The position numbers were made by a program, and so were the translations under genes. From Fulvia fulva (taxonomy: Eukaryota > Ascomycota > Dothideomycetes > Mycosphaerellales > Mycosphaerellaceae), in the NCBI RefSeq assembly GCF_020509005.1, contig NC_063012.1, positions 8,742,001 through 8,806,000 of the forward strand: a stretch of 64,000 bases of DNA, in the 5' to 3' direction. Position 1 is the stretch's first letter. The number at the start of each line of letters is the position of its first letter. The notes below the pieces were generated by a model. That model was not told the origin of the DNA and ran no database searches. It was given only the letters and a program-made list of their open reading frames with translations. This document shows, piece after piece, positions 27,814 to 41,519 of the stretch.

Positions 27814-30800
27814 TCAGGCGTCTGTTGGCCCGTTACCTCCTGATGCGGCTGCAGAGGGCACTGAGGTGCGTGGGTCCACGCCTTCCTCAGCCATATTGAG
27901 CAGCTTGACGAAGTGCTTGTGCTTCTGTGGTGGAAGCAGCTTGGTCAGCCCGTCTGCAGGCATGTCGTTGGTGCTGAGATACTTGATCTCAATGTCTCCG
28001 CGCTGGTCTCGCTGTCGGAGCCAGTGGTGGTGGATGTCAACGTGGCGTAGCTTCGTGTCAAGCTTTTGCCCTTGTTGGTTGACAAGGCGGATGGTCTGCG
28101 TGTTGTCGCAGTACAAGTGGGTGCGCTGATTGAACTGAAGGTGTATCTCAGCGAAGACTCGTTCCCACTGTATGAGCTCTGAGGCGGCTTGCGAAAGCCC
28201 GAGTAGCTCAGCCTCTGTTGAGGACTTGGTGACAGTGATTTGTTTAGATGCCTTATAATCCACTGGTCCACCGAACAGCATGAAGACCCAGCCATTTGAG
28301 CTGGTCCTGTCATTATTCATGCCGTAGGACGCGTCCGATGCTCCAAAGAACTCGTGGTTGCTACCGAGGTGCTCTGGTTGGCTGTGAAGGCCAGTGATGT
28401 GTTTGCTGGCGCCATATACAAGGCAGAGGTTCTTGGTCTCCAGGAGATAGCGCAAGCACTGATCTGCAAGCTTGAGGTGTGTCTCAGTTGGCTTGGTCAG
28501 ATACTGCGATAGCATGGACAAGGAAAAGGCGATGTCAGGCCGCGTGTGTGTGGCGGCGAAGTTGAGGGATCCTATACGTTGTTGGTACGTAAGGATGGCG
28601 ATAGAGGTGGGTTGATGACCCTCTGGAACGGTCCAATCAAGGTGTTGATCTACTGGCACTGTCGTTTTGCGTGCATTCGTGGATATGCTGAATTTGGCGG
28701 CTAGCTTCTCAATGTAGTCTTCTTGAGAGAGCCACAGCAAGCGCTTGTTTCTGTCGCGCGTAACCTTGATTCCTAGGAACCAGGAGAGATCACCGAGCTC
28801 GTGCATCTCGTACTTGGCAAGCAGCCGCTGCTTGATGTTGGCAGCATGGGCCTTGTGCTTGCGGTGGTAGAGCATAACCAGGTCGTCAACGTAAAAGAAG
28901 AACATAACCTTGTTGTCATGGTAGATGCATTCGGAGTCCGACAGGGGTACTAGTCCAAGGGAGGCCAGCGTCTCGGTTAGGGAGTTGTACCACAATAAAG
29001 GGGACTCCTTCAGACCGTAGAGGGCCTTGACCAGCTTGAGGGCGTGTCCATGGGATGGCCTGTCGATTCCAGGAGGTGGTTGCAGATACATGGTGTATGG
29101 CAGGTCCGAGTTCAGGAAGGCGTTGACAACATCGAATTGTTCGGCTTCTAGGTCGAAGCTCGCGGCCATAGCACAGCAGAGGCGGAACATGCTTGCTGGC
29201 AGTGTGGCGGCGTATGTGTCTAAGTGTGTTCCTTGCAAATCGCCTCTTGCGCATAGCCTAGCCTTGAAGCTCTTCAGCATGCCGTGCTCGTCCAGTTTGT
29301 ATTTGTACACCCACTTGAGCGGCAGTAGTGGCTGAAGTCCCTCCTCTTGCTGAGCATCCTGATCCTTCTCTTCCTTTGTTGCCCATCTGAATGTGCCTGT
29401 TGCCAGGGCTTTGGCAAACTCCTTGGCCATAGCTTCGATCCACTGTTGGGAGAAGCGGTGTTTCATAGCGGCTCGGTAGTTAGAAGGTTCGGGCGGAAGG
29501 TCATCGCGGTGCATAGAGGTAGTGGTGTTGACACGCCTTAGAGGGCTGTTGCCTCTTCGTGTAGGGCTTCGATCGCTCTTGTCGCGATAGGCGCGTGTTC
29601 TGGGTCGTATGCCGGACATCTGGCCGATGATTACATTAGCGACCATGATCTGGTGCAGTGCATAGTGGAAGTAGGCCGTTCGTAGGCGCTTTCCATTCTC
29701 TGTGACTGCATAGTTGGACTCCTCTGGTGTGTAGAGCTCTGGCTCCAGGGGGAAGAGTGGTGTGTTGGACGCGTTGTGTGTTAACGCGTCTTCTGGTGGT
29801 GTGAATGTGAATGGATATGGCTCGCGATCAGGGTCCGTGTTGCCCATGATCTCCTCACGGTCTTCTGCGGTGAGGGCATCCATTATCTGCTGCTGCAGGG
29901 TATCGTAGTAGTCAGTGGTGTTGGGTGCTGACTGCTGTGTCTTGTCTTGAGTCACGTGATCTGTTACGTGCTCGATTTGCCGGTCTTTTTGGTTATATGT
30001 TGCTGACTCGCGGTGTTGCGGCCAGTGTGGTTCTTGCCCAAGGAGCTTTTGGTGGGCGTCTCGAGGTTGTTGGGTGTGCGGCTGCTGAGCCTGTTCTTCC
30101 ACCCCCTCGGCCTGTGCTGTGTCTTGCTCGTGATGAGCGACATACAGGTCGTAGTATTGTTCAGGCTCTTCAGCCGGTTCCGCTGTTGCGATGTTCTCGA
30201 CAGGGGTCGTGTACCCTGCTGTCAGGCGTGATGGGTCATAGAACGTGGTCTCATCGAAGAGGACGTCCTTGACTCGCATAACCCTATCTTTTGATGGGTC
30301 CCATACGCGGTAGATGTTAGTGGAGTCGTATCCCACAAGGTAGCCTATGAGCGCTCTCTCTTGGAGTTTCTCGCTCTTGCCAGGCTGATCTGGTCCATGG
30401 ATGAACACGTATGCAAGGGAGCCATACACCACCATGTGACCCACGTTCGGAATTCGTCCTGTTGCCAATTCGAATGGGGTCTTCCAGCCCTTTGACTGGA
30501 TAGGGGATCGCCAGAGGATGTACGCCGCTGCTGCAGTGCATTCTGGCCAAAGCTTTTCCGGCAATCGTGCGTGGATGCGAATGGTTCTGCTCATGGTGAT
30601 GATCAGAGCTCCAGCTCTTTCTGCTGGGTCCTGCGCAGGCGCGTATTCCGCGGTTGCGTGCCATTCAATCTTGTTGTTGTTGATGACTGAGCGAAACACC
30701 TTCCCAATGGCGGGCTCGTTGTCGCTGTAGAAGCATACGAACCTGCGACCAATGAAGTTGATGAAGCTCAGCAGGCTGTTGAAGCAAGCCAACACCGATT

Positions 30801-32787
30801 GCTGATCCCTGTTCTTGATGGTGAACTGGAAGTGTCCATGGGTATCCAGATCGTAGAAGTGGACGAGGTACCTGTCACCGTTGTAGGCGACAGTGAATTC
30901 TGCCAAGTCCATGGCCATGTGGCCGTATGGGGTCATCACCCTGATGGGCTGAGACCGATTGTGCACCTTGTGAGCTTTGCTAAGCCCACATGCTCTGCAA
31001 TGTGCAGTGAGGGGTGCGCTTGGACCATCGTTAATGATCACCCCCTCAACTCTGAGCGGCAACTGCTTGATGCGTTCAGCGCCAATGTGACCAAAGATTT
31101 GATGCCACTGGCGGCCAGAGAGCTTTCGGTGTTTGATGGGGGTCCTGCTGGACGTAGCTGCACCTTGAGTGCCCCCAGTGCTGTTCATGACTGCGAGAAC
31201 GGTGCGATCACCATCCTCTTGAGCAGTTGGAGATGCTGCGCTGTTGGCAGGTTCATCGCCGATGTTTGCACCCCTGCCAATAGTGCTGATGAAGTGCGCG
31301 TTGCGCATCTTTTCAGTGACCTTCGGCAGTACTAGGCCCTCTTTTGTAGGCCATTGGTAAATGATGGGTGACTTAGGTGGTGTGACCACCTTGAAGAAAG
31401 GGATTGTACCAGTAGGGCGGTGTAGGTCCATCAATTTAGTGTCGTTGTGCCACATTGAATTGCTGCGTCCGTGCCACCAGAGTCCGGCTCTTTCCATGCG
31501 TGTGTGAGAGATGACGTTCACATGAAAGCCTGGGCAGTAAGCCACATCCAGCAAGGTGAATGAATGGCCCCCAATTGACATATGAACGCGCCCTAACGCT
31601 GCAATTGGAAAGGTGGTTGTTCCAGCCTGGATTTCTGAGGTGGTGAGGCGCTCTGCAATGAACTCTACACCCTCCTGGTCATGATGATTGATCACATGAG
31701 TGTCTGAACAGTTATCATACACCCAGCAATCCCTGAAGTTGACGCTCAACTTGCTAATTGAGCTAGAAAGAACAGTAAGGCCAACAAAGCCCTTATCGCT
31801 TGGTGATGCCTTCTTCGCATCAGCAATAGCCTTGTCACGTTCCTGGTCCTTGCGATTGTTGCGATTCAACACGCCAAGCAGACGCTCGCCGTCGTCGCTC
31901 AAGCAGTAGTTGATGAAGTTTTTCCAGTACTTCTTCCACTGCTCTGAGCGCTGATCCTTTGCTGGGCGCTTGTCGGGGTTGATCACATCGCATGAGAACA
32001 GGCCCTTGTGACAGGTGTCCTTGGGCTCGCCGGTGATGTTCCAGCAGCCGCTTGGCCTGTTGTTGTCCTTGTCTTTGTTCTTGTCGCCGCGGCTGCTGCC
32101 ACGACCCTTGTCACCGCGGCTGTTGCCACGGTTGTCACCACGGCTGCTGCCACGGTCACCCTCCTTTTGACCAGCACCTGTGGGTGCTGTTTCATCCTCT
32201 GCTTCTGCTGAGGTTTCTCCGGAGAAGGTTGCGAAGACTGATCGACCGTTGGTTGTTGCTGGTGCGGTGTCGCGTATCCATTCGAGGTAACGCTCAGTAA
32301 GCTTTTGTAGTGACATTTTGTCACGCTTCCACTCGTTGTATAGAGAAGCACCGTAGGCTGGAGCCTGCTTCTGCTGAATAGCAAGTAGGAAGTGTCTACT
32401 AAGGTCGTCGTACTCGGCGTGGTTGCACTTAAGCATCTTGGTCTGCAAAACTAACCAGTCTGAGCACCAGTCATCGATTCTGCGTGCGCTAGCCTTCTGA
32501 AGCCTAGACAGCTCAAGCGTGAGCTGCCGCTTACGCAGCATATCGTCTGGACCATACTGATCCTTGAGAGCCTGGTATTTCGCTCTGAGGGTGTTCTGGC
32601 CGTGCATTAGCTCTTGCCCTAGCTCTGTCGTCGTACGGATGAGGTAGGTAATGAGCTTTGATCGCGCAGCAGCAAAGATGTCGTACATCCGTTGCCTTCG
32701 GTCTGCGTCTGTTTGTCGTAGCTTGATGAGATCTCTTGATGTAGCGTCTCCTGCCGTGTACGCTTGTTGGATTTCCTCAAACGTCAA
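27814..32787 (-). CDS. Copia-C gag-pol polyprotein (1657 aa, uninterrupted)
   Basis: A single frame encodes all functions needed for retrotransposition. Order: gag (1-~250) ending in an Arg/Gly/Ser-rich stretch (about 212-236) and an atypical Cys/His cluster (C248, C259, H260, C266); protease with D-N-C at 358-360 and LLDVAYCPG at 412-420; integrase with HHCC H562/H567/C597/C600 and acidic residues D627, D689 and E723; a 250-aa low-complexity linker; RT with YVDD at 1299-1302; RNase H with D1485, E1525 and D1561. The start is uncertain: the coordinate given is a TTG, the frame stays open upstream to a TGA in the LTR with no ATG, and the first in-frame ATG is codon 34 (32688). A CTG at 32817-32815, followed by SNEPTEPTH, is the best upstream candidate. 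Other long ORFs here are shadows. Confidence 0.93.
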   Translation of the reverse strand: MTFEEIQQAYTAGDATSRDLIKLRQTDADRRQRMYDIFAAARSKLITYLIRTTTELGQELMHGQNTLRAKYQALKDQYGPDDMLRKRQLTLELSRLQKASARRIDDWCSDWLVLQTKMLKCNHAEYDDLSRHFLLAIQQKQAPAYGASLYNEWKRDKMSLQKLTERYLEWIRDTAPATTNGRSVFATFSGETSAEAEDETAPTGAGQKEGDRGSSRGDNRGNSRGDKGRGSSRGDKNKDKDNNRPSGCWNITGEPKDTCHKGLFSCDVINPDKRPAKDQRSEQWKKYWKNFINYCLSDDGERLLGVLNRNNRKDQERDKAIADAKKASPSDKGFVGLTVLSSSISKLSVNFRDCWVYDNCSDTHVINHHDQEGVEFIAERLTTSEIQAGTTTFPIAALGRVHMSIGGHSFTLLDVAYCPGFHVNVISHTRMERAGLWWHGRSNSMWHNDTKLMDLHRPTGTIPFFKVVTPPKSPIIYQWPTKEGLVLPKVTEKMRNAHFISTIGRGANIGDEPANSAASPTAQEDGDRTVLAVMNSTGGTQGAATSSRTPIKHRKLSGRQWHQIFGHIGAERIKQLPLRVEGVIINDGPSAPLTAHCRACGLSKAHKVHNRSQPIRVMTPYGHMAMDLAEFTVAYNGDRYLVHFYDLDTHGHFQFTIKNRDQQSVLACFNSLLSFINFIGRRFVCFYSDNEPAIGKVFRSVINNNKIEWHATAEYAPAQDPAERAGALIITMSRTIRIHARLPEKLWPECTAAAAYILWRSPIQSKGWKTPFELATGRIPNVGHMVVYGSLAYVFIHGPDQPGKSEKLQERALIGYLVGYDSTNIYRVWDPSKDRVMRVKDVLFDETTFYDPSRLTAGYTTPVENIATAEPAEEPEQYYDLYVAHHEQDTAQAEGVEEQAQQPHTQQPRDAHQKLLGQEPHWPQHRESATYNQKDRQIEHVTDHVTQDKTQQSAPNTTDYYDTLQQQIMDALTAEDREEIMGNTDPDREPYPFTFTPPEDALTHNASNTPLFPLEPELYTPEESNYAVTENGKRLRTAYFHYALHQIMVANVIIGQMSGIRPRTRAYRDKSDRSPTRRGNSPLRRVNTTTSMHRDDLPPEPSNYRAAMKHRFSQQWIEAMAKEFAKALATGTFRWATKEEKDQDAQQEEGLQPLLPLKWVYKYKLDEHGMLKSFKARLCARGDLQGTHLDTYAATLPASMFRLCCAMAASFDLEAEQFDVVNAFLNSDLPYTMYLQPPPGIDRPSHGHALKLVKALYGLKESPLLWYNSLTETLASLGLVPLSDSECIYHDNKVMFFFYVDDLVMLYHRKHKAHAANIKQRLLAKYEMHELGDLSWFLGIKVTRDRNKRLLWLSQEDYIEKLAAKFSISTNARKTTVPVDQHLDWTVPEGHQPTSIAILTYQQRIGSLNFAATHTRPDIAFSLSMLSQYLTKPTETHLKLADQCLRYLLETKNLCLVYGASKHITGLHSQPEHLGSNHEFFGASDASYGMNNDRTSSNGWVFMLFGGPVDYKASKQITVTKSSTEAELLGLSQAASELIQWERVFAEIHLQFNQRTHLYCDNTQTIRLVNQQGQKLDTKLRHVDIHHHWLRQRDQRGDIEIKYLSTNDMPADGLTKLLPPQKHKHFVKLLNMAEEGVDPRTSVPSAAASGGNGPTDA

Positions 32788-33902: not shown

Positions 33903-34445
33903 TGTCATAGCCCTTAACATTATAGTCAGCCTTTCTCTTTCTAAGGGATGATTTAGGGACCGTTACTTATAACCTAGTAACGTCTATTTCCTAGGGATCT
34001 AGGGAGCTTCTCTTAATTAGCTAATCGATTTTCTGAAATTCCCCTACGTTCTCCGGAGGTTAAGGAAGTTATATAAACAGCTTTCTCGGCTAAGCGACTT
34101 TAGGGCTCTCAATTAGCTAATCTATCTCGGGGGTACTCTAATAGACGCCTAAATAGTAGGTAGATTGTCCTAAGGATACGTTCTTCCTCGGCCTTCCTAA
34201 GGGCTTCCTAGCTAGTATACTACTTAGTAGATTTAATGTTAGAACATTAAGACCTATATCACCTCTAGGCTAGTCCTTAAAGAAGTCTATATATATATGT
34301 TATTTAACAGCTCTTATGTCTAGTTCCTAAAAGAGCTAGGCTTTAGCTATGTTTTTAATATACCTAATAAACACTACTTCTTTACCCCTATTTATTAGCT
34401 TGTCACTTCTTACCTATTAAGGTTAGGATCTTATGTCTATATAGA
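33903..34445 (-). pseudogene. Copia-B integrase C-terminal relic
   Basis: RIP-damaged. On the minus strand the frame from 41584 (GYEAIVY) continues across the Gypsy-E insertion as IDIRS, showing that both pieces belong to the same gene. No intact frame. Confidence 0.8.
34441..34445. repeat. 5-bp TSD of Gypsy-E (left copy)
   Basis: ataga before the left LTR, repeated at 41515-41519 after the right LTR. Confidence 0.95.
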
Positions 34446-34817
34446 TGTTATGTCTCGTTCCAGGGCTAGTCTCAAAGAGGAGATCAGTCAAGTCACGTGG
34501 CGGTATTCTTTGGAGAGGCTGAAGCAAGCTGAGCGAAGATGAATGATTGAGATAGAAGTCGTATTCCAATCAGTGAGATAGTAACATGAGTTGAACGCCT
34601 CGAAGCCATAAGGGCATCTCGTCGTTCCTAAATACAAAGGAGACATCGCCATTCCAGGCGATGATCAATGTGATCAGTGTGATCAGTGTCGCTGAGCATA
34701 CTGATCACTGAGCACTGATCACCCCTGTCACGTGACAGGTGATCAGTTCTAGTGAGGCAGGGTCCCGTGACTCTACAGGTGAGGGTTGTGGGGCAGCGCG
34801 CTGCTTAAACCGTAACA
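34446..34817 (-). repeat. Gypsy-E 3' LTR (372 bp)
   Basis: tgttatgtctcg...ccgtaaca. It contains a cluster of GATCA motifs (about 34662-34745) and a perfect 16-bp palindrome cctgtcacgtgacagg at 34724-34739 with an E-box CACGTG core. Any promoter for the antisense ORF would have to lie in or just after this LTR. Confidence 0.95.
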
Positions 34818-34831
34818 CCATCCCCTTTTTA
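34818..34831 (-). other. Gypsy-E polypurine tract
   Basis: On the minus strand ctaaaaaggggatgg directly precedes the LTR start TGTTACGG, the expected plus-strand primer. Confidence 0.75.
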
Positions 34832-34902
34832 GCCTAGCTCAGTCCCTTGAGCTTACTTATGATGGTGACGTCCCCAGGTCTGTTTCTTCATGGCTTTCTG
34901 CG

Positions 34903-35460
34903 ATGCCTAACCCACAACGCCCTTCTAGCACAATCCGTCGCCGTCGTCTTTACGATTTTGTCGAGTCCGCGGGCGAAGTCATGGTCAAGAAGTGTTCGTC
35001 GTGCGAGAGGCATGGTCGTGTGTGCAAGGTGCACATTCGCTCTGGAAAATGTAGCGAGTGTCTTCGTCGTGGCCAGCGTTGCGACGTAAAGGTGACTCAG
35101 TCGGAGTTCAAGAGGTTGGCGGAGGAGAAGGTTCGTCTTCGGGAGAAGATCCAGGAGTCCCGGGCTGCGCAAGAGGAGGCGATGCGCATACATGAAAAGG
35201 CCTTAGAAGACCTCAAAGTCGCAAGGGCTCGGGAGGAGCGCCTGCGCCAGCAGATGGACTTGATCGATCGCCGTGCTGAAGAGGCGATCTCCGTCGAAGA
35301 GCGGAGTATTGAGGAGCAGGAGGCCGCGGAGGCTTCTTCACTGCTTCCGGAGGTGGAGACCGTTGGTCTCTCATTAAGCCTGTCTCCTAGCACCTGGGGT
35401 GCTCTAGAGGGTTTCGGTGACGACTTCTGGGAGATCCCCGAGCTGCTGCCGGCGGGTTGA
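34903..35460 (+). CDS. Antisense ORF of Gypsy-E: Zn2Cys6-like cluster plus coiled coil (185 aa)
   Basis: Not a standard retrotransposon gene. Lies on the strand opposite to gag-pol, 85 nt inside the 3' LTR, and overlaps the last 24 pol codons (35387-35460). Seen: six cysteines at 31, 34, 41, 50, 53 and 60, spacing C-x2-C-x6-C-x8-C-x2-C-x6-C, which fits the fungal Zn(II)2Cys6 binuclear cluster; a basic N terminus (IRRRR at 11-15); a charged helical stretch at about 67-143 that looks like a coiled coil; and an acidic, hydrophobic end (DDFWEIPELL, 173-182) resembling an activation segment. The ATG has G at -3. Inferred: a DNA-binding regulator made by the element. Alternatively a CCCC-type zinc protein of other function. 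The minus strand is also open here, so ORF length alone proves nothing; the cysteine spacing is the main evidence. Confidence 0.7.
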   Translation: MPNPQRPSSTIRRRRLYDFVESAGEVMVKKCSSCERHGRVCKVHIRSGKCSECLRRGQRCDVKVTQSEFKRLAEEKVRLREKIQESRAAQEEAMRIHEKALEDLKVARAREERLRQQMDLIDRRAEEAISVEERSIEEQEAAEASSLLPEVETVGLSLSLSPSTWGALEGFGDDFWEIPELLPAG

Positions 35461-38400
35461 CGGGTACGTTTGCGTTGTGGTATTCCTGTATTCTTTGCTG
35501 ACAGCTCCGTAGGTTCGCTTTTGGTTCCCAGGTATTTTCTGATTCGTCGTATCCTTTCCACTTGACAAGGTATCGCTGACCTTTTTTGTCCAGGATTTTT
35601 TCGACCTCGAATTCGGTTTCTTCCTCTGGCTGGTAATGAAATGATTGTTGGCATGGTGTTCCGGGGTCCGCTGGTTCCAGCATAGATATGTGGAATACTG
35701 GGTGGATTTTTGCGTCTTTGGGCAGCCGTAGTCGGTAGTTGACTGGTCCTCGAGATTCTTCAACGAGAAATGGTCCGACTTTCACATGGTCCAGTTTCTT
35801 GGTCTTTCTTCTTGTTCTGAGATTTTTGGTGAGAAGATAGACCTTATCCCCCTTCTTTAGCTGAGGTGCCATTTGTCGTTTTTGTCGGGAGGTTGATAGT
35901 TTCCCCTGGCTCTTCTCGATTTCTTTGCTGACAGTTTCGTGTACCCTCTTTAGGTCTTGTGTCGTGGCGATAGCTCTGTCAGCTTGTGGGTGTTTTCCTT
36001 CTTCGCCAAACAGTGTAGGATGTTTTCCGTAGTTTGCGAAGAATGGTGTCTCGTCCGTCGTCTCGGATTTATGATTGTTCAGTGCTAATTGCGCCATGGG
36101 TAGGAGTGATACCCAATTGTCTTGTGCGTAATTTACGTAGTGTCGAAGGTATTGTTCCAGTGTCTGGTTTGTTCTTTCCGTTTGTCCGTCCGTCTGCGGA
36201 TGGTACGCTGTCGACAGCTTGTGTTGTATGCCGATCGTTGACACTAGAGTCTTCCAGTAATTCGATGTGAATAGCTTGTCACGGTCGGTGATGAAAACCT
36301 TAGGGAATCCGTGATATCGAACTAGTCTGTCGAGAACAAGGTATCCGAGTTGCTCTGCGGTATATGTCTCGCTCGCTGGTATGAAGTGTGCATATTTGGT
36401 TAGGCGGTCGACCATGACTAGAATCATGTCGTAGGTAGTGCCTGTTGCCTTGTCCGCTGAGTTGGGTAACTTGGTAATAAAGTCCATCGTTACTTCATCC
36501 CACGGTTGTGTCGGTGGTTTCCTGAACTGTATTTGTCCGTACTTCTCGTGTCGTGCAGCCTTGTTCTGTTGACAGTGCACGCATCGTTTGATGTACTGTA
36601 GCACTTTCTGTCTCATCTGCGGGAATGAGAAGCTCCGCTGCATGACCTCGAGAGTTTTCGTGGTTCCAGGATGTCCATATGTTGGATTGTCGTGATGTTG
36701 TCGTATGCATTCTTCTTCTCGTTCCCTCGGTACCTGGTACTTCCCGTGTGCTAGTGGGAACTGTTCCGTGGTATCCTGAAGGACTTGCACTATGTTGTTG
36801 AACTCCTTTGTGTTGGCGCTCAGACTCCCGTCGTGGTTAGTCTTAAGTACTTGTTGCCGTACCGGTTCTTTGCCTTCCATGTAGTCGCTTCTTCGGCTTA
36901 GTGCGTCGGCCCTACCATTGTCTTTGCCGGGTGTATAGCGGATTTCGAACTTGTACTGACCGAGCAGTTCCGACCAGCGGGACTGCCTTCGTGTTAGCAC
37001 TTTTGTCGTAGTGAAGTAAGTGAGATTCTTATGATCAGAAAGAATCGTCAGCTTGGGTGCTCCTTCTGCGTATACCCTCCAGTGCTGCATCGCAGCGACA
37101 ATGGCGAGAAGTTCCTTGTCATGGATGTCGTAGTTTTGTTCCGCGGGTGTCATTTTTCTTGAGTAATAGGCCACCGGGTGTCGTTTCCCATCATGTTCTT
37201 GAGTAAGGCATGCTCCTATGGCCATGTCCGATGCGTCCGTCTCGATCTGGACTTCTTTCGTACCGTCGAATAGTCGTAGCGTAGGTGCTGAGGCGCATTG
37301 TTCCTTGAGTAATTCGAATGCTTGCTGTTCTTTGGTGCCCCAGGCCCATTTGGTATCCTTTCTGGTGAGTGCCGTCATTGCCGCTGCTGTCTTGGAGTAG
37401 TCCTTAATGAACTTGCGGTTGTAATTCGCTAGTCCCAAGAAGGATTGTACGTCCTTGACGTTCGCTGGTTTTGGCCACTCCCGGATGGATTGCGTCTTTG
37501 CTGGATCGATTCTTATCCCCGTCGTGCTTATAATAAAGCCGAGGAACTTGACTTCTTTCTTGTGGAACTCGCATTTTTCTGGTGCCGTCTTGAACCCTGC
37601 TTGTGTGAGTCGTTCGAAGACGTCCCGGACTTTCTTAACGTGATCTTGGAGCGGTCCTTTCGTGTATACCAGTATGTCATCCATGTAGGCGATAACGCAG
37701 ACGTCGAGAAGATCTCGTAACGTCTCGTTAACGAGGTCCTGGCAGGATGCTGGTGCATTAGTCAAACCCATGGGCATGACTAAGAATTCGTAGAGTCCAT
37801 ATCTTGTCCTGAATGCGGTCTTCCATTCTTCGCCTTCCGCCATGCGGATTGCGTAGAATGCGTCTCGTAAGTCGATTTTGGTGTACCAGTCTGATCCAGT
37901 AAGTCTGTCTTGTGCTTCTTCGATGTTCGGTAGTGGATATCGGTTCTTTATCGTGACCTCGTTCAACTTTCGGTAGTCTTGTACGAGTCGTAACTTCCCG
38001 TTTGGTTTTGGAACAAACATACATGGAGTTCCCGCGCTAGAGGTGGATCGTCGTATCCATCCTTTGGCGAGTTTCTCCTTCAGCCATTCTCGTAGGGTTT
38101 CTAGCTCTTTCTCGGACATTTGATATAGGGGTCCCCATGGAGGCTCTTTCCCTGGCTGAATGTTTATTTTGTGGTCCCATGGTTGGTGTTTAGGAAGTGC
38201 GTCTTTGCCTTTTTCCTCTTCAAAGAGCCTCTTCCACCTGAGGTACTCCTTGGGAATGCTCGGTTCCGATATGCGGGCATTCTTCGATGGTGCGTTACTT
38301 CCATCCGTTCCAGTGATTTCATGATCCGGCGGCCCCACGCCAGTATCTATCCCGGTCGAAGGTGGTTCCTGGTTCCTTCTGTTCGGCGCAAGCTCGAATG

Positions 38401-38872
38401 CGTTGAGCTGTTTCCTTGCCTCATCTACCGCCTCTCGCTGTCGACGCGTAGGTTCAATGCCGATAACGCAGTTGCATTGCTTAAATGTGAGTACTCCTCT
38501 TCTCCAGTCGATAACTGGGTTGTGCTTTCTCAACCAAGGCATACCTAGTACTATGTCATGACTGGCCATATCAGTGACATCCAAGGTAATATTCTCGTGG
38601 TGCTGTTGGATAGCCAGTGGCAATGGTCTCGTCTCCCATTCCACGCTAGGTAACGATGATCCATCTACTGCGATCAACTCGTAACCCCATTTCTTCTTCA
38701 GGGTAGCTAACCCGTTTCTGGTAGTGAAAGACTCGGAGATAAAGTTCCCCGCTGCTCCTGAGTCGATCATGACACTGGTTCGGTGTCCGTTGACGATTGC
38801 TTGTGTTTGGAAAACTGTGTTTGATGTCGATGCCTGAGCTTGAGTGTTGCATAACTCCCTTTGGGTGCTCAT
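35387..38872 (-). CDS. Gypsy-E pol: protease-RT-RNase H-integrase-chromodomain (1161 aa)
   Basis: Copies the element RNA into DNA and integrates it. Domains: aspartic protease DSG at 37-39 and IVLGMPWL at 107-114; RT with RYPLPNIEE, LVMPMGLTNAP and YMDD at 396-399; RNase H from TDASD at 545 to ADALSRR near 655-661; integrase zinc binding (HHDNPTYGHPG, then C764 and C767); catalytic D797, D863 and E899 (TDGQTERTNQ); and a C-terminal chromodomain at about 1087-1132 (EVEKILDKK, YLVKWKGYDESENTWEP), which in chromoviruses directs integration to modified histones. Starts with ATG at 38872, overlapping the gag TGA as ATGA, so translation may be by termination-reinitiation. The last 24 codons overlap the antisense ORF. 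No RIP stops. Confidence 0.96.
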   Translation of the reverse strand: MSTQRELCNTQAQASTSNTVFQTQAIVNGHRTSVMIDSGAAGNFISESFTTRNGLATLKKKWGYELIAVDGSSLPSVEWETRPLPLAIQQHHENITLDVTDMASHDIVLGMPWLRKHNPVIDWRRGVLTFKQCNCVIGIEPTRRQREAVDEARKQLNAFELAPNRRNQEPPSTGIDTGVGPPDHEITGTDGSNAPSKNARISEPSIPKEYLRWKRLFEEEKGKDALPKHQPWDHKINIQPGKEPPWGPLYQMSEKELETLREWLKEKLAKGWIRRSTSSAGTPCMFVPKPNGKLRLVQDYRKLNEVTIKNRYPLPNIEEAQDRLTGSDWYTKIDLRDAFYAIRMAEGEEWKTAFRTRYGLYEFLVMPMGLTNAPASCQDLVNETLRDLLDVCVIAYMDDILVYTKGPLQDHVKKVRDVFERLTQAGFKTAPEKCEFHKKEVKFLGFIISTTGIRIDPAKTQSIREWPKPANVKDVQSFLGLANYNRKFIKDYSKTAAAMTALTRKDTKWAWGTKEQQAFELLKEQCASAPTLRLFDGTKEVQIETDASDMAIGACLTQEHDGKRHPVAYYSRKMTPAEQNYDIHDKELLAIVAAMQHWRVYAEGAPKLTILSDHKNLTYFTTTKVLTRRQSRWSELLGQYKFEIRYTPGKDNGRADALSRRSDYMEGKEPVRQQVLKTNHDGSLSANTKEFNNIVQVLQDTTEQFPLAHGKYQVPREREEECIRQHHDNPTYGHPGTTKTLEVMQRSFSFPQMRQKVLQYIKRCVHCQQNKAARHEKYGQIQFRKPPTQPWDEVTMDFITKLPNSADKATGTTYDMILVMVDRLTKYAHFIPASETYTAEQLGYLVLDRLVRYHGFPKVFITDRDKLFTSNYWKTLVSTIGIQHKLSTAYHPQTDGQTERTNQTLEQYLRHYVNYAQDNWVSLLPMAQLALNNHKSETTDETPFFANYGKHPTLFGEEGKHPQADRAIATTQDLKRVHETVSKEIEKSQGKLSTSRQKRQMAPQLKKGDKVYLLTKNLRTRRKTKKLDHVKVGPFLVEESRGPVNYRLRLPKDAKIHPVFHISMLEPADPGTPCQQSFHYQPEEETEFEVEKILDKKGQRYLVKWKGYDESENTWEPKANLRSCQQRIQEYHNANVPVNPPAAARGSPRSRHRNPLEHPRC

Positions 38873-41124
38873 TCCTTGGGAGTCGATCCTTTTCCCGAAT
38901 GGTATGTGGTTCGCTGTGCTTCGTGCCTAGTAGCTTCGGCTAGAACCTGTAGCCCGTTGCCTTGTGTCCACACTTGTAGTCTGTTGCGTTCCTGGATCTT
39001 TTGCGATTCTAAGTAGAGAGCCCGTACGTGCTGTACTGCTGTTCGTAGTTCATTGGAGACGAATGTTCCTGCTGGTGTCAGGTATCCGGCACCCGTCACC
39101 TTGCTTCCTATAGGTGGCCGTTCCATAACTGCCTTCGACAGGTCCTCAGTGTTGCTCATGGTTGGGAAGCCCCAAACCATGCCTCTCATCGTGTCGAGCG
39201 TCTTGTCAAATTCGACAGGATTTAAGTATCTTTTGCCTGAGAACTTCGGTAGGAATTCTTCGTGTCGTCGCTGGAGGTAGATGATTAACTCATGGAGTTT
39301 TCTTGGCGCGTCTACCGTGAACGTATATATTTCGTTTTCGTCGTCTGTATCGCTCTCTTCTCCTTCGGATGATTCTTCGCTAGAATCTTCCGGATCTTGT
39401 TCTTCGGCGATGTCGTCTAAGCCCGGGTCTCTTTGTGCTTCGGATGGTGGTGGCGACCACGATCCGTCCCATGCTGGGTCTTGGTTTTCTTTGTCGTCGT
39501 CGTTAAAACAAGATTCGTCGATGTCCACTTCTTGGAGCTTCGAGTTTTGTCTGTGCTGGGCTCCCAGGGTACCGCGCGGTTGTTGCGGCCAGTATCCTGC
39601 TCCTTCTTTGGCGGAGTAGTGGGTTTGGCACGAGTCCTGGTAACAGAAGCGCCAGTGAAGGCCTCCGTGACCGTGTCGAGATTCCCTCTCGACTTCGTGG
39701 TTGACTCCTCGTGCCATCATGCCAAACAATCTCTCTTTTCTTCCTTCTGCTTCAATGCGGCTCGTCAGGGTCCACCATTGAGTATGCAGTTGGTCGTAAA
39801 AAGGCTTGCATAGTAACTGCAGCCCTTGTTCTTCTGCTTCTTCTGTAACTTCGTCAAGTAGGAGGATTGCCTTGTCCACGCAGGACAAGACTTCCTTGGT
39901 CCTGGGTAGTATATAGATGGTTTTAATCCTCTGGAGATCTTCCTCGAGGTTTCGTTGCACCCGAAGAATCTTCCACTTGACGTTGTCCCGAGATTGTTGG
40001 TCATTGGGTGGTAGTGGATGTTGTTGTACATGGTAGCCTCCTCTTCCTTGCGAGGGGTCCAGGAGAGATGTCGCAACCCGGTTGCTGTCCTTCTCCTCCA
40101 CTCTCTGAGTATAGTTGAATTGTCGGGGTCCAACGCTGCTCCCAGATTTGCCCACCGTGGGTTGCATCATGTTGAATTGCTCGCGGCGCACCATATTTTT
40201 ACCGCGGCAATCCCTTGCCATGTGGCCTTCCTTGCCACATGCGTAACACGTTAGTTTTCCTTTACCTTTGAAGGGTCTTCCGTTGCCCTTGCTTTTGTCG
40301 ATCCTCCTTCCTCGCTGGGTAGCGTCCAGTTCCATTGGCTGTGGTCCATAGTAGGGCTGGCTTTGTCGCTGGAATCCTCCCTTCGCAACATACCCTCCGG
40401 TATTCCTGCGGTCTGGGATAAATCCTGCCATGCCTCCTACTTTGGAGTCGTATCGTTTTTCCTGGTATCGCTCCCAGAGTTGATCATCGATATCGATCGA
40501 TGCTTTCATCAACTGCTCGAGGCTAGAGATCGATCCTCCGTGTCTCATAAGCTCGTCCTTGACCGAGTCCTTGAGACCACGTCGGAACATAGTCATCAGC
40601 GCCGTCTGGTCCCATCCGGTGATCTGTCCATACTCCTCGAATTTGGCCGCATACTCTGAAGTAGAAGTCTTCTGTTTCAGGTGTTGGATAATGCGTACGG
40701 CTTGTTGTACTTCGTTCGAGGTTCCAAAGATAGACTTCATCTTGTCCTTGAAAAGGGTGTAGTTCCTGAACATTCCGGTGGGGTCGTGTCGTCCCATACC
40801 GTCAAGGTATTCCTTGAGATAGGATTTGATCCAGTTTTGCGCACTTCCGCGAAGGAACGTGATGGCGAAGATAGTTCTTTTGTCGGAGTCGACTGGGTTG
40901 AACATGAGGTACATGTCCATCTGGTTAACCCAATCGTCGTATTTGGCCCTATCGCCATGGAAGAGATCCGGCTTGGCAGCCTTAACGTCCTTCTTCCTTG
41001 GGATGGAGTCTTCGTCATCAGACTCATCGTCCTTCGTGGTGGTCTGTCGAGGTGGCGCACGGCGGATGCTTCCTGCTTCGCTGGGGGCGGGTGTTCCCCT
41101 ACCAGCTGCTTGAGTAGCGCTCAT
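38869..41124 (-). CDS. Gypsy-E gag (751 aa from its first ATG)
   Basis: Structural nucleocapsid protein. The ATG at 41124 (MSATQAAGRG) is 17 nt inside the LTR; the frame is open further back into the LTR but without an ATG. An acidic N-terminal segment (DDESDDEDS, 32-40) precedes a retrotransposon gag fold at about 53-225 (DWVNQMDMYL, FLRGSAQNW), a PMELDA motif near 263-268, and a CCHC zinc knuckle CYACGKEGHMARDC at 293-306. About 445 residues follow the knuckle, including a very acidic region (EEQDPEDSSEESSEGEESD), far longer than usual for a Ty3/Gypsy gag. Ends in TGA at 38871-38869 within ATGA. Confidence 0.92.
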   Translation of the reverse strand: MSATQAAGRGTPAPSEAGSIRRAPPRQTTTKDDESDDEDSIPRKKDVKAAKPDLFHGDRAKYDDWVNQMDMYLMFNPVDSDKRTIFAITFLRGSAQNWIKSYLKEYLDGMGRHDPTGMFRNYTLFKDKMKSIFGTSNEVQQAVRIIQHLKQKTSTSEYAAKFEEYGQITGWDQTALMTMFRRGLKDSVKDELMRHGGSISSLEQLMKASIDIDDQLWERYQEKRYDSKVGGMAGFIPDRRNTGGYVAKGGFQRQSQPYYGPQPMELDATQRGRRIDKSKGNGRPFKGKGKLTCYACGKEGHMARDCRGKNMVRREQFNMMQPTVGKSGSSVGPRQFNYTQRVEEKDSNRVATSLLDPSQGRGGYHVQQHPLPPNDQQSRDNVKWKILRVQRNLEEDLQRIKTIYILPRTKEVLSCVDKAILLLDEVTEEAEEQGLQLLCKPFYDQLHTQWWTLTSRIEAEGRKERLFGMMARGVNHEVERESRHGHGGLHWRFCYQDSCQTHYSAKEGAGYWPQQPRGTLGAQHRQNSKLQEVDIDESCFNDDDKENQDPAWDGSWSPPPSEAQRDPGLDDIAEEQDPEDSSEESSEGEESDTDDENEIYTFTVDAPRKLHELIIYLQRRHEEFLPKFSGKRYLNPVEFDKTLDTMRGMVWGFPTMSNTEDLSKAVMERPPIGSKVTGAGYLTPAGTFVSNELRTAVQHVRALYLESQKIQERNRLQVWTQGNGLQVLAEATRHEAQRTTYHSGKGSTPKE

Positions 41125-41130
41125 CCTGAG

Positions 41131-41139
41131 GGCGTTCAA
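41131..41139 (-). other. Gypsy-E primer-binding site (self-priming type)
   Basis: On the minus strand TTGAACGCC starts 2 nt after the 5' LTR, within the 17-nt leader. It is complementary to GGCGTTCAA in the LTR (plus 41287-41295), located just downstream of a TATA-like box. No tRNA 3'-end complement is seen. Confidence 0.65.
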
Positions 41140-41141
41140 AG

Positions 41142-41514
41142 TGTTATGTCTCGTTCCAGGGCTAGTCTCAAAGAGGAGATCAGTCAAGTCACGTGGCGGT
41201 ATTCTTTGGAGAGGCTGAAGCAAGCTGAGCGAAGATGAATGATTGAGATAGAAGTCGTATTCCAATCAGTGAGATAGTAACATGAGTTGAACGCCTCGAA
41301 GCCATAAGGGCATCTCGTCGTTCCTAAATACAAAGGAGACATCGCCATTCCAGGCGATGATCAATGTGATCAGTGTGATCAGTGTCGCTGAGCATACTGA
41401 TCACTGAGCACTGATCACCCCTGTCACGTGACAGGTGATCAGTTCTAGTGAGGCAGGGTCCCGTGACTCTACAGGTGAGGGTTGTTGGGGCAGCGCGCTG
41501 CTTAAACCGTAACA
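41142..41514 (-). repeat. Gypsy-E 5' LTR (373 bp)
   Basis: Same as 34446-34817 except one extra T (ttgttgggg versus ttgtgggg). The palindrome cctgtcacgtgacagg is at 41420-41435. Followed by the TSD ataga. Confidence 0.95.
41287..41330 (-). promoter_or_regulatory. Gypsy-E TATA-like box and predicted RNA 5' end
   Basis: Minus strand: TATTTA at 41330-41325, then GAGGCGTTCAA starting 33 nt later at 41297-41287. The latter pairs with the primer-binding site at 41131-41139. The spacing fits a TATA-to-start distance, so the transcript probably begins at about 41297. Confidence 0.55.
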
Positions 41515-41519
41515 ATAGA

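What the first reader, a model, noticed from the sequence alone, without database searches (positions are those of the whole stretch)
34903..35460. Gypsy chromovirus with an antisense gene for a Zn2Cys6-like, coiled-coil protein
Between the 3' LTR and the end of pol, on the opposite strand, lies a 185-codon ORF with cysteines at 31, 34, 41, 50, 53 and 60 (C-x2-C-x6-C-x8-C-x2-C-x6-C). That is the spacing of the fungal Zn2Cys6 DNA-binding cluster; a basic patch precedes it, a long charged helix follows, and an acidic/hydrophobic tail ends it, the layout of a small Gal4-type regulator. A retrotransposon coding a candidate transcription factor on its antisense strand, overlapping pol by 74 bp, suggests self-regulation or control of host chromatin. 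The cysteine spacing is seen; the DNA-binding role is inferred.
Basis: partly seen in the sequence, partly recalled or inferred. Interest (0 to 1): 0.88.

Follow-up and report, generated by a model that had tools for sequence, protein, structure and literature searches.

The report
Retrotransposon's antisense zinc-cluster regulator gene
A jumping gene in a fungus carries, back to front, a conserved gene for what looks like a small DNA-binding switch protein, and this gene is replaced together with the control region beside it, as if each element family brings its own lock and key.

Summary
In detail: a 185-codon ORF (34903-35460, +) lies antisense between pol and the 3' LTR of a young Gypsy chromovirus, with the stated cysteine spacing. 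It is a real, conserved gene: 249 of 264 fetched homologues keep the six-cysteine pattern. In the window's own genome 32 of 32 stop-free pol places of this lineage carry it at the same antisense place, and pol-less families keep just gag plus this gene. AlphaFold models of two divergent members have a cysteine domain best matched by Zn2Cys6 regulators (weak scores), then a long helix and an acidic tail; the Pfam Zn_clus match is sub-threshold. New here: the ORF and the U3 region upstream of the TATA box are both replaced between families whose remaining DNA is 85-96% identical, and each variable U3 holds family-specific iterated motifs. Best reading: a dimeric, sequence-specific regulator, probably an activator or anti-silencer, made from the 3' LTR and acting on its own U3. 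DNA binding, expression and sign of action are inferred. ORF-U3 pairing is striking in some pairs but not significant overall (Mantel p 0.095). Antisense genes at this place are known (plant aORFs, Botrytis brtn) without known function.

The parts
34441..34445 (.). target-site duplication ATAGA, one copy (other copy 41515-41519)
34446..34817 (-). 3' LTR, 372 bp, TGTTA...TAACA
34644..34817 (-). variable part of U3 in the 3' LTR (no DNA match to the sister family F6 here except scattered motif similarity)
34662..34745 (.). array of six TGATCA sites in U3 (34662, 34671, 34680, 34702, 34716, 34740), candidate binding sites
34818..34853 (.). polypurine-tract complement and conserved hairpin, leader of the antisense ORF
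34903..35460 (+). antisense ORF (aORF), 185 aa, candidate sequence-specific regulator
34993..35082 (+). six-cysteine domain, residues 31-60, Zn2Cys6-like in the model
35098..35340 (+). long helix, residues 66-146, candidate dimerisation helix
35341..35457 (+). acidic, aromatic tail, candidate activation domain; last 24 codons overlap pol
35387..38872 (-). pol, 1161 aa (protease, RT, RNase H, integrase, chromodomain)
38869..41124 (-). gag, 751 aa
41128..41141 (-). primer-binding site, looks self-primed
41142..41514 (-). 5' LTR, 373 bp
41323..41332 (-). TATA-like box of the sense promoter, near where the conserved part of the LTR begins
41340..41514 (-). variable part of U3 in the 5' LTR, upstream of the sense TATA box, with the same TGATCA array (41358-41441)

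Best explanation
The ORF is a genuine accessory gene of a clade of ascomycete Gypsy elements. Its product is a small, probably homodimeric protein with a Zn2Cys6-like cysteine cluster, a long dimerisation helix and an acidic, aromatic tail. It is transcribed antisense from the 3' LTR (inferred) and binds the iterated short motifs in U3 just upstream of the sense TATA box (inferred). In the 5' LTR this raises gag-pol transcription, either as an activator or by countering silencing; in the 3' LTR the same motifs lie upstream of its own gene, giving autoregulation (inferred). Because ORF and U3 flank the polypurine tract at the 3' end of the RNA, one template switch in pol and one at the U3/R boundary can exchange both at once, so element families trade regulator and control region as a cassette (the replacement is shown; the route is inferred).
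For: Conservation of protein and cysteines. Same antisense place in 32 of 32 stop-free pol places, and kept in pol-less gag-only families F4, F5, F8rip, F9rip and F10 (3' part of one copy). Fold: Foldseek's best match in two models is Pho7, and all second-look rows spanning the cysteine domain are Zn2Cys6 (HAP1, Pho7, LAC9, Leu3, PUT3); profile-profile score against 30 host Zn_clus domains is reached by cysteine-kept permuted columns in 0 of 60 trials (canonical spacing) and 1 of 60 (all members); three homologues bear the source name 'Zn(2)-C6 fungal-type domain'. Charge layout in homologues. ORF and U3 both replaced in F3/F7, F2/F3, F2/F7, F1/F6 and F4/F5 while the rest stays 85-96% identical in DNA (dS for three of these pairs). 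Iterated motifs in variable U3 of 9 of 9 families tested; in the conserved half only F3 stands out. F10, fetched as a possible counterexample, has an F7-type ORF and an F7-like U3 on an F4/F5 backbone; F6 has an F5-type ORF and F5-like U3 on an F1 backbone. The ORF tree rejects one origin for the pol-less backbone (AU p 8.8e-6).
Confidence: 0.6

Rival explanations
1. Anti-silencing factor: like plant VANC proteins, it binds family-specific motif arrays and removes repressive chromatin or methylation from its own element rather than recruiting the transcription machinery.
For: Same logic of element-encoded protein, tandem target motifs and fast divergence of both as reported for VANC (PMC5735166, abstract and one results section read); iterated motifs differ between families.
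Against: The acidic, aromatic tail looks more like an activation domain; no VANC domain is among the six Pfam families listed for the window protein.
Confidence: 0.2
2. Repressor and copy-number control: it represses its own U3, so that families with different ORF/U3 pairs are blind to each other, as heteroimmune phages are.
For: Cassette replacement of protein and target region is what diversifying immunity would give; four intact pol-bearing families (F1, F2, F3, F7) and the degraded F6 share this genome.
Against: Pol-less, highly copied elements keep the gene; a parasite gains little from repressing itself. Acidic, aromatic tail.
Confidence: 0.14
3. A nucleic-acid-binding accessory protein acting after transcription (packaging, nuclear entry, integration), for which the tie to U3 is hitch-hiking on a neighbouring exchange.
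For: ORF and U3 are neighbours at the 3' end; a hairpin lies between them in 10 of 10 families; global ORF-U3 correlation is not significant.
Against: Family-specific iterated motifs in exactly the replaced U3 stretch upstream of the TATA box; F7/F10 and F5/F6 pairs share ORF type and U3 type on different backbones.
Confidence: 0.12
4. No protein function: an open frame kept by overlap with pol, or an antisense RNA acting as such.
For: The last 24 codons overlap pol; no expression data.
Against: F7, F4, F5 keep the ORF without overlapping gag or pol; 249 of 264 homologues keep six cysteines; long ORFs are rare in shuffles.
Confidence: 0.03

Closest known systems
brtn of Boty-like retrotransposons (Botrytis cinerea)
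   Same: Antisense gene between pol and 3' LTR of a fungal element with gag-pol and chromodomain (title of Zhao et al. 2011 seen in reference lists; passages in PMC7264820, PMC8365987, PMC4227169; PMC5987419 mentions a Monilinia transcript similar to BRTN).
   Different: The 2011 paper is not held, so its sequence and any cysteines could not be compared; the 2020 review calls such functions unknown. No U3 coupling or pol-less carriers were seen in the passages read.
Plant antisense aORF-3R genes (Grande gene23, RIRE2, Retand TRP28)
   Same: Antisense gene at the same place, conserved in most copies, suspected to bind DNA (PMC7264820, passages and one section; PMC11963269, passages).
   Different: TRP28 (PF04195) is not among the six Pfam families listed for the window protein; different host kingdom; no coupling to U3 described in the passages read.
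VANC anti-silencing proteins of Arabidopsis VANDAL transposons
   Same: Element-encoded, sequence-specific, targets are tandem motif arrays that vary between related elements (PMC5735166, abstract and section 9 read).
   Different: Not an LTR retrotransposon (recalled), other protein domains (DUF1985, DUF287); demonstrated by experiment there, inferred here.
HTLV-1 HBZ (recalled)
   Same: Antisense gene for a coiled-coil regulator made from a promoter in the 3' LTR (antisense promoter of HTLV mentioned in PMC7264820; HBZ itself recalled).
   Different: bZIP, not a cysteine cluster (recalled); a retrovirus; no homology was tested.
Fungal Zn2Cys6 regulators (Pho7, HAP1, LAC9, Leu3, PUT3)
   Same: Six-cysteine spacing, predicted fold of the cluster, long helix behind it.
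   Different: Sub-threshold sequence match, element-encoded, C2-C3 spacing of 13 in F4 and F5, U3 motif of F1 is not CGG.
CfT-I, the Gypsy element of Cladosporium fulvum (McHale 1992, recalled)
   Same: Family F2 here (6963 bp, LTR about 426 bp) fits its recalled size; the window element is a sister family.
   Different: The paper was not seen; whether it noted the antisense ORF could not be checked.

Membership tests
Fungal Zn2Cys6 (Zn_clus, PF00172) regulators | C-x2-C-x6-C-x5-12-C-x2-C-x6-8-C spacing (recalled consensus) | tested here: met
   window protein fits exactly; 117 of 166 homologues of the first two searches have 2-6-8-2-6; F4 and F5 have 13 between C2 and C3
Fungal Zn2Cys6 (Zn_clus, PF00172) regulators | curated Pfam score | tested here: not met
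   no match for the window protein at E <= 1; 0 of 46 members of A1 at E <= 0.1; 26 of 50 members of A5 at E <= 1, best E 0.013; the one printed has 11.3 bits against cut-off 21
Fungal Zn2Cys6 (Zn_clus, PF00172) regulators | binuclear cluster fold | tested here: inconclusive
Fungal Zn2Cys6 (Zn_clus, PF00172) regulators | zinc binding and CGG-type DNA recognition | not testable with these tools
   no binding data; CGG/CCG twice in variable U3 of F1, six times in F2, nine in F3
Antisense aORF-3R of LTR retrotransposons | antisense ORF between pol and 3' LTR, kept in most copies | tested here: met
   (32 of 32 stop-free pol places; 11 of 31 with stops)
brtn family | sequence homology to BRTN | not testable with these tools
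   BRTN sequence not held; paper not held
VANC proteins | DUF1985/DUF287 domains | tested here: not met
   neither is among the six Pfam families at E <= 1 for the window protein; lists for other members are capped at 25 families and do not show them
VANC proteins | binding to own tandem motifs and loss of methylation | not testable with these tools
   only the presence of iterated motifs was shown
Chromovirus (Gypsy, Metaviridae) | RT, RNase H, integrase and chromodomain in Gypsy order | tested here: met

The most novel reading that the evidence does not exclude
Ascomycete Gypsy elements, with the pol-less elements that live off them, use an exchangeable specificity cassette: an antisense zinc-cluster regulator gene plus its cognate iterated U3 control region, traded between backbones by template switching and kept as old alternative types shared between fungal genera. 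It would be a eukaryotic retrotransposon counterpart of the heteroimmune regulator/operator cassettes of phages.
Probability: 0.45. Interest if true: 0.9.

Novelty: new variant of a known kind. Interest (0 to 1): 0.82.

Why it matters
Antisense genes beside the 3' LTR of Gypsy elements have been known in plants and Botrytis with function unknown (PMC7264820). Here the anatomy gives that class a testable function: a concrete predicted fold, concrete candidate binding sites, natural cassette swaps, and gag-only elements that keep the gene after losing pol. It would also show that a retrotransposon can evolve its own promoter-specific regulator, and would explain why such a gene sits antisense and next to the 3' LTR.

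Tried and rejected
dN/dS between families was rejected as a test because dS is saturated or undefined. A pure chance ORF or a by-product of pol was rejected. The idea that the gag-only family F10 lacks the gene was tested and rejected on the one copy read, L059. A scan of viral contigs for related elements found none. NCBIfam gave weak matches, mostly to long coiled-coil or unrelated proteins. The bacterial Gfh1 match in PDB sequence searches lies on the long helix alone and was set aside as a coiled-coil resemblance. The other Gypsy lineage of the genome (2 loci of 4 kb read, L057 and L058, of 83 listed pol matches at 37-41% identity) shows no six-cysteine ORF in the stretch read; its LTRs were not delineated there. 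In the second-look structure searches the absence of other folds proves nothing.

One search was discarded: two degraded copies were read in wrong frames; one search replaces it. In one search the F10 stretch was misplaced; one search replaces it.

Full report
What is there. The window lies in a 67,169,167-base, 14-contig genome, the exact size printed for Cladosporium fulvum Race 5 in PMC10823647 (passages read); the name is therefore an inference. On the minus strand lies a complete Gypsy chromovirus: 5' LTR 41142-41514, gag 38869-41124, pol 35387-38872 with protease, RT, RNase H, integrase and chromodomain, 3' LTR 34446-34817. The two LTRs differ by one single-base indel and the element is flanked by the duplication ATAGA, so the insertion is recent. 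On the plus strand, starting after an 85-base spacer inside the 3' LTR and ending 74 bases inside pol, is the ORF of the finding (34903-35460, 185 aa) with the cysteine spacing as described.

It is a real gene. A search of predicted proteins gave 195 relatives at E <= 0.01 (120 listed), a pol-less family's ORF gave 46, and a profile of distant members gave 215 at E <= 0.1 (120 listed). Of the 264 distinct proteins so listed (the window's own among them), 249 keep the six-cysteine pattern (155 of 166; 94 of 98); by my reading of the other 15, nine are fragments and six have altered cysteines. Names given by the sources include Cercospora, Elsinoe, Sporormia, Hortaea, Cladosporium, Cryoendolithus, Fusarium, Pyricularia, Cordyceps, Beauveria, Colletotrichum, Hirsutella and Chaetomium, that is Dothideomycetes and Sordariomycetes (classes recalled). 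In 46 close relatives five cysteines, and residues such as G48, R113, R115 and D119, are invariant and C50 nearly so. Shuffled DNA rarely gives an ORF of that length (0 to 4 of 1000 per family, six families).

Same place in every intact relative. The own genome gives 79 matches to the ORF, 66 without a stop in the matched part (such counts are lower bounds by the tool's note). They fall into families that I call F1 (the window, 5 copies), F2 (15), F3 (7), F7 (6), F4 (9), F5 (23) and the degraded F6 (1). Of 63 pol places of the same lineage (55% identity or more over the matched C-terminal part; two of them pieces of one broken copy), 32 have no stop in the matched part and all 32 carry the antisense ORF at their 3' side; of the 31 with stops 11 do, and four more are seen with another query (counted by eye). 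Two loci of a different Gypsy lineage of the same genome show none in the 4 kb read. In F7, F4 and F5 the ORF overlaps neither gag nor pol, so its conservation does not come from pol.

Pol-less elements keep it. F4 (2367 bp) and F5 (2517 bp) are LTR-gag-antisense ORF-LTR and nothing else; in the copies read their LTR pairs are identical and flanked by 5-bp duplications. Degraded F8rip and F9rip have the same plan. Of F10 only the 3' part of one copy was read, out of 17 stop-free gag matches at 77-78%; there the ORF ends close to the gag end, which leaves no room for pol. All 32 stop-free ORF copies without a pol of this lineage beside them belong to F4 and F5. On the other side, one of ten F4-type gag places (C9:1164202) has no ORF match beside it. 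After loss of pol, gag and this ORF were what remained. Gag-only elements as such are known in plants (TR-GAG; search listing only).

The ORF and the U3 change together. Between F3 and F7 the gag is 98.5% identical (dS 0.03), pol 92% (dS 0.34) and the core LTR 92%, yet the ORFs are 23-28% identical and U3 upstream of the TATA box cannot be aligned. The alignment breaks off 88-148 bases before the end of pol, comes back for about 45 bases at the polypurine tract and LTR tip, breaks again in U3, and resumes at the TATA-like box. F2/F3, F2/F7, F1/F6 and F4/F5 behave alike (F4/F5: gag 97%, ORF 42%), except that F1/F6 shows no island at the polypurine tract in that search and the island is longer and weaker in F2/F3 and F4/F5. 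For F3/F7, F2/F3 and F4/F5 the gag dS is 0.03, 0.32 and 0.10 and pol dS at most 0.43, while ORF dS is 1.7 or undefined; the ORFs were replaced rather than drifting in place. The F7 ORF is 73% identical to one of Cercospora kikuchii (P0184), far more than to F3 in its own genome. A tree of 34 ORFs needs four changes between the pol-bearing and the pol-less backbone (three forced by well-supported branches) and rejects the pol-less ones as one clade (AU p 8.8e-6); F10 is a long branch whose join with F7 the program flags. So regulator types appear older than the backbones they now sit on.

The replaced U3 is made of iterated motifs. In 9 of 9 families tested the variable U3 holds more repeated 7-mers than shuffles (0 of 1000 shuffles reach it in seven, 4 and 5 of 1000 in F4 and F2); in the conserved part of the LTR only F3 stands out (11 of 1000). 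F1, F5 and F6 have CTGATCA-type sites, partly palindromic, F3 AGGCACTCC, F7 TCACCAAGTCRCTGGTGA. F7 and F10 share both ORF type and U3 similarity on unlike backbones, and so do F5 and F6. The best ORF partner is also the best U3 partner in 5 of 10 families (F5, F6, F7, F9rip, F10; F5 and F9rip also have like backbones); the best backbone partner is so in 0 of 10. Against this, over all 45 pairs the correlation is not significant (rho 0.20, p 0.095), F1 and F5 share the motif with distant ORFs, and F1/F2, F1/F3 and F4/F5 have related ORFs but unlike U3s. Ten families in one genome are too few to settle it.

How it most likely works. Shown: conserved antisense gene, Zn2Cys6-like model, replacement together with U3, motif arrays upstream of the TATA-like box. 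Inferred: transcription from the 3' LTR, dimerisation, binding to the arrays, positive effect on sense transcription, autoregulation, and exchange by template switching between co-packaged RNAs. The antisense place makes sense on this view: the same U3 drives gag-pol from the 5' LTR and the regulator from the 3' LTR, and regulator and target are inherited as neighbours. I put 0.6 on a sequence-specific regulator of its own U3 acting positively; anti-silencing in the manner of VANC (PMC5735166) is the nearest rival and only experiments can part them.

What is known. PMC3248453, a survey of fungal LTR elements, has no occurrence of 'antisense' in the text held. I therefore call it a new variant of a known kind.

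Noticed in passing
34818-34853 and the same place in nine other families: A hairpin, in most families with loop GTCCC and compensatory stem changes, sits between polypurine tract and ORF start in 10 of 10 families (no shuffle control); F8rip is weakened and F10 has another stem. It could serve the sense RNA or the antisense leader.
   Followed up: partly
41128-41141 and 41287-41297 (-): The primer-binding site CTTTGAACGCCCTC is complementary, with one extra base, to GAGGCGTTCAA about 30 nt downstream of the TATA-like box, as in self-primed Tf1 elements (recalled).
   Followed up: partly
38869-41124 (-): Gag carries an extra C-terminal region of some 370 aa, whose last 286 aa are about 71% identical between F1 and F2, with a Pfam WCCH match; the 330-aa gags of the pol-less elements lack it.
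   Followed up: no
38869-38872 (-): gag stop and pol start overlap as ATGA here, and by four bases in F3 and F7 too, suggesting reinitiation or a shift rather than a fused frame.
   Followed up: no
L016 (G000:C1:11151200-11161199) and G000:C11:1744996-1804984: F5 forms a head-to-tail array with 2161-bp spacing (element minus one LTR), and elsewhere three copies 29,780 bases apart.
   Followed up: no
variable U3 of F3, F5, F6, F7, F8rip and F10: A CCAAT or ATTGG box occurs in six of ten U3s (sequences printed, read by eye), in five of them near the LTR tip, a possible part of the antisense promoter.
   Followed up: no
27814-32688 (-): A second long retrotransposon ORF of 1624 aa (Copia-like by inspection) precedes the element in the window.
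   Followed up: no
members of alignment A5: 8 of 50 members match Pfam DUF3716 weakly (best E 0.0073), a family that may be a cousin of this cysteine domain.
   Followed up: no
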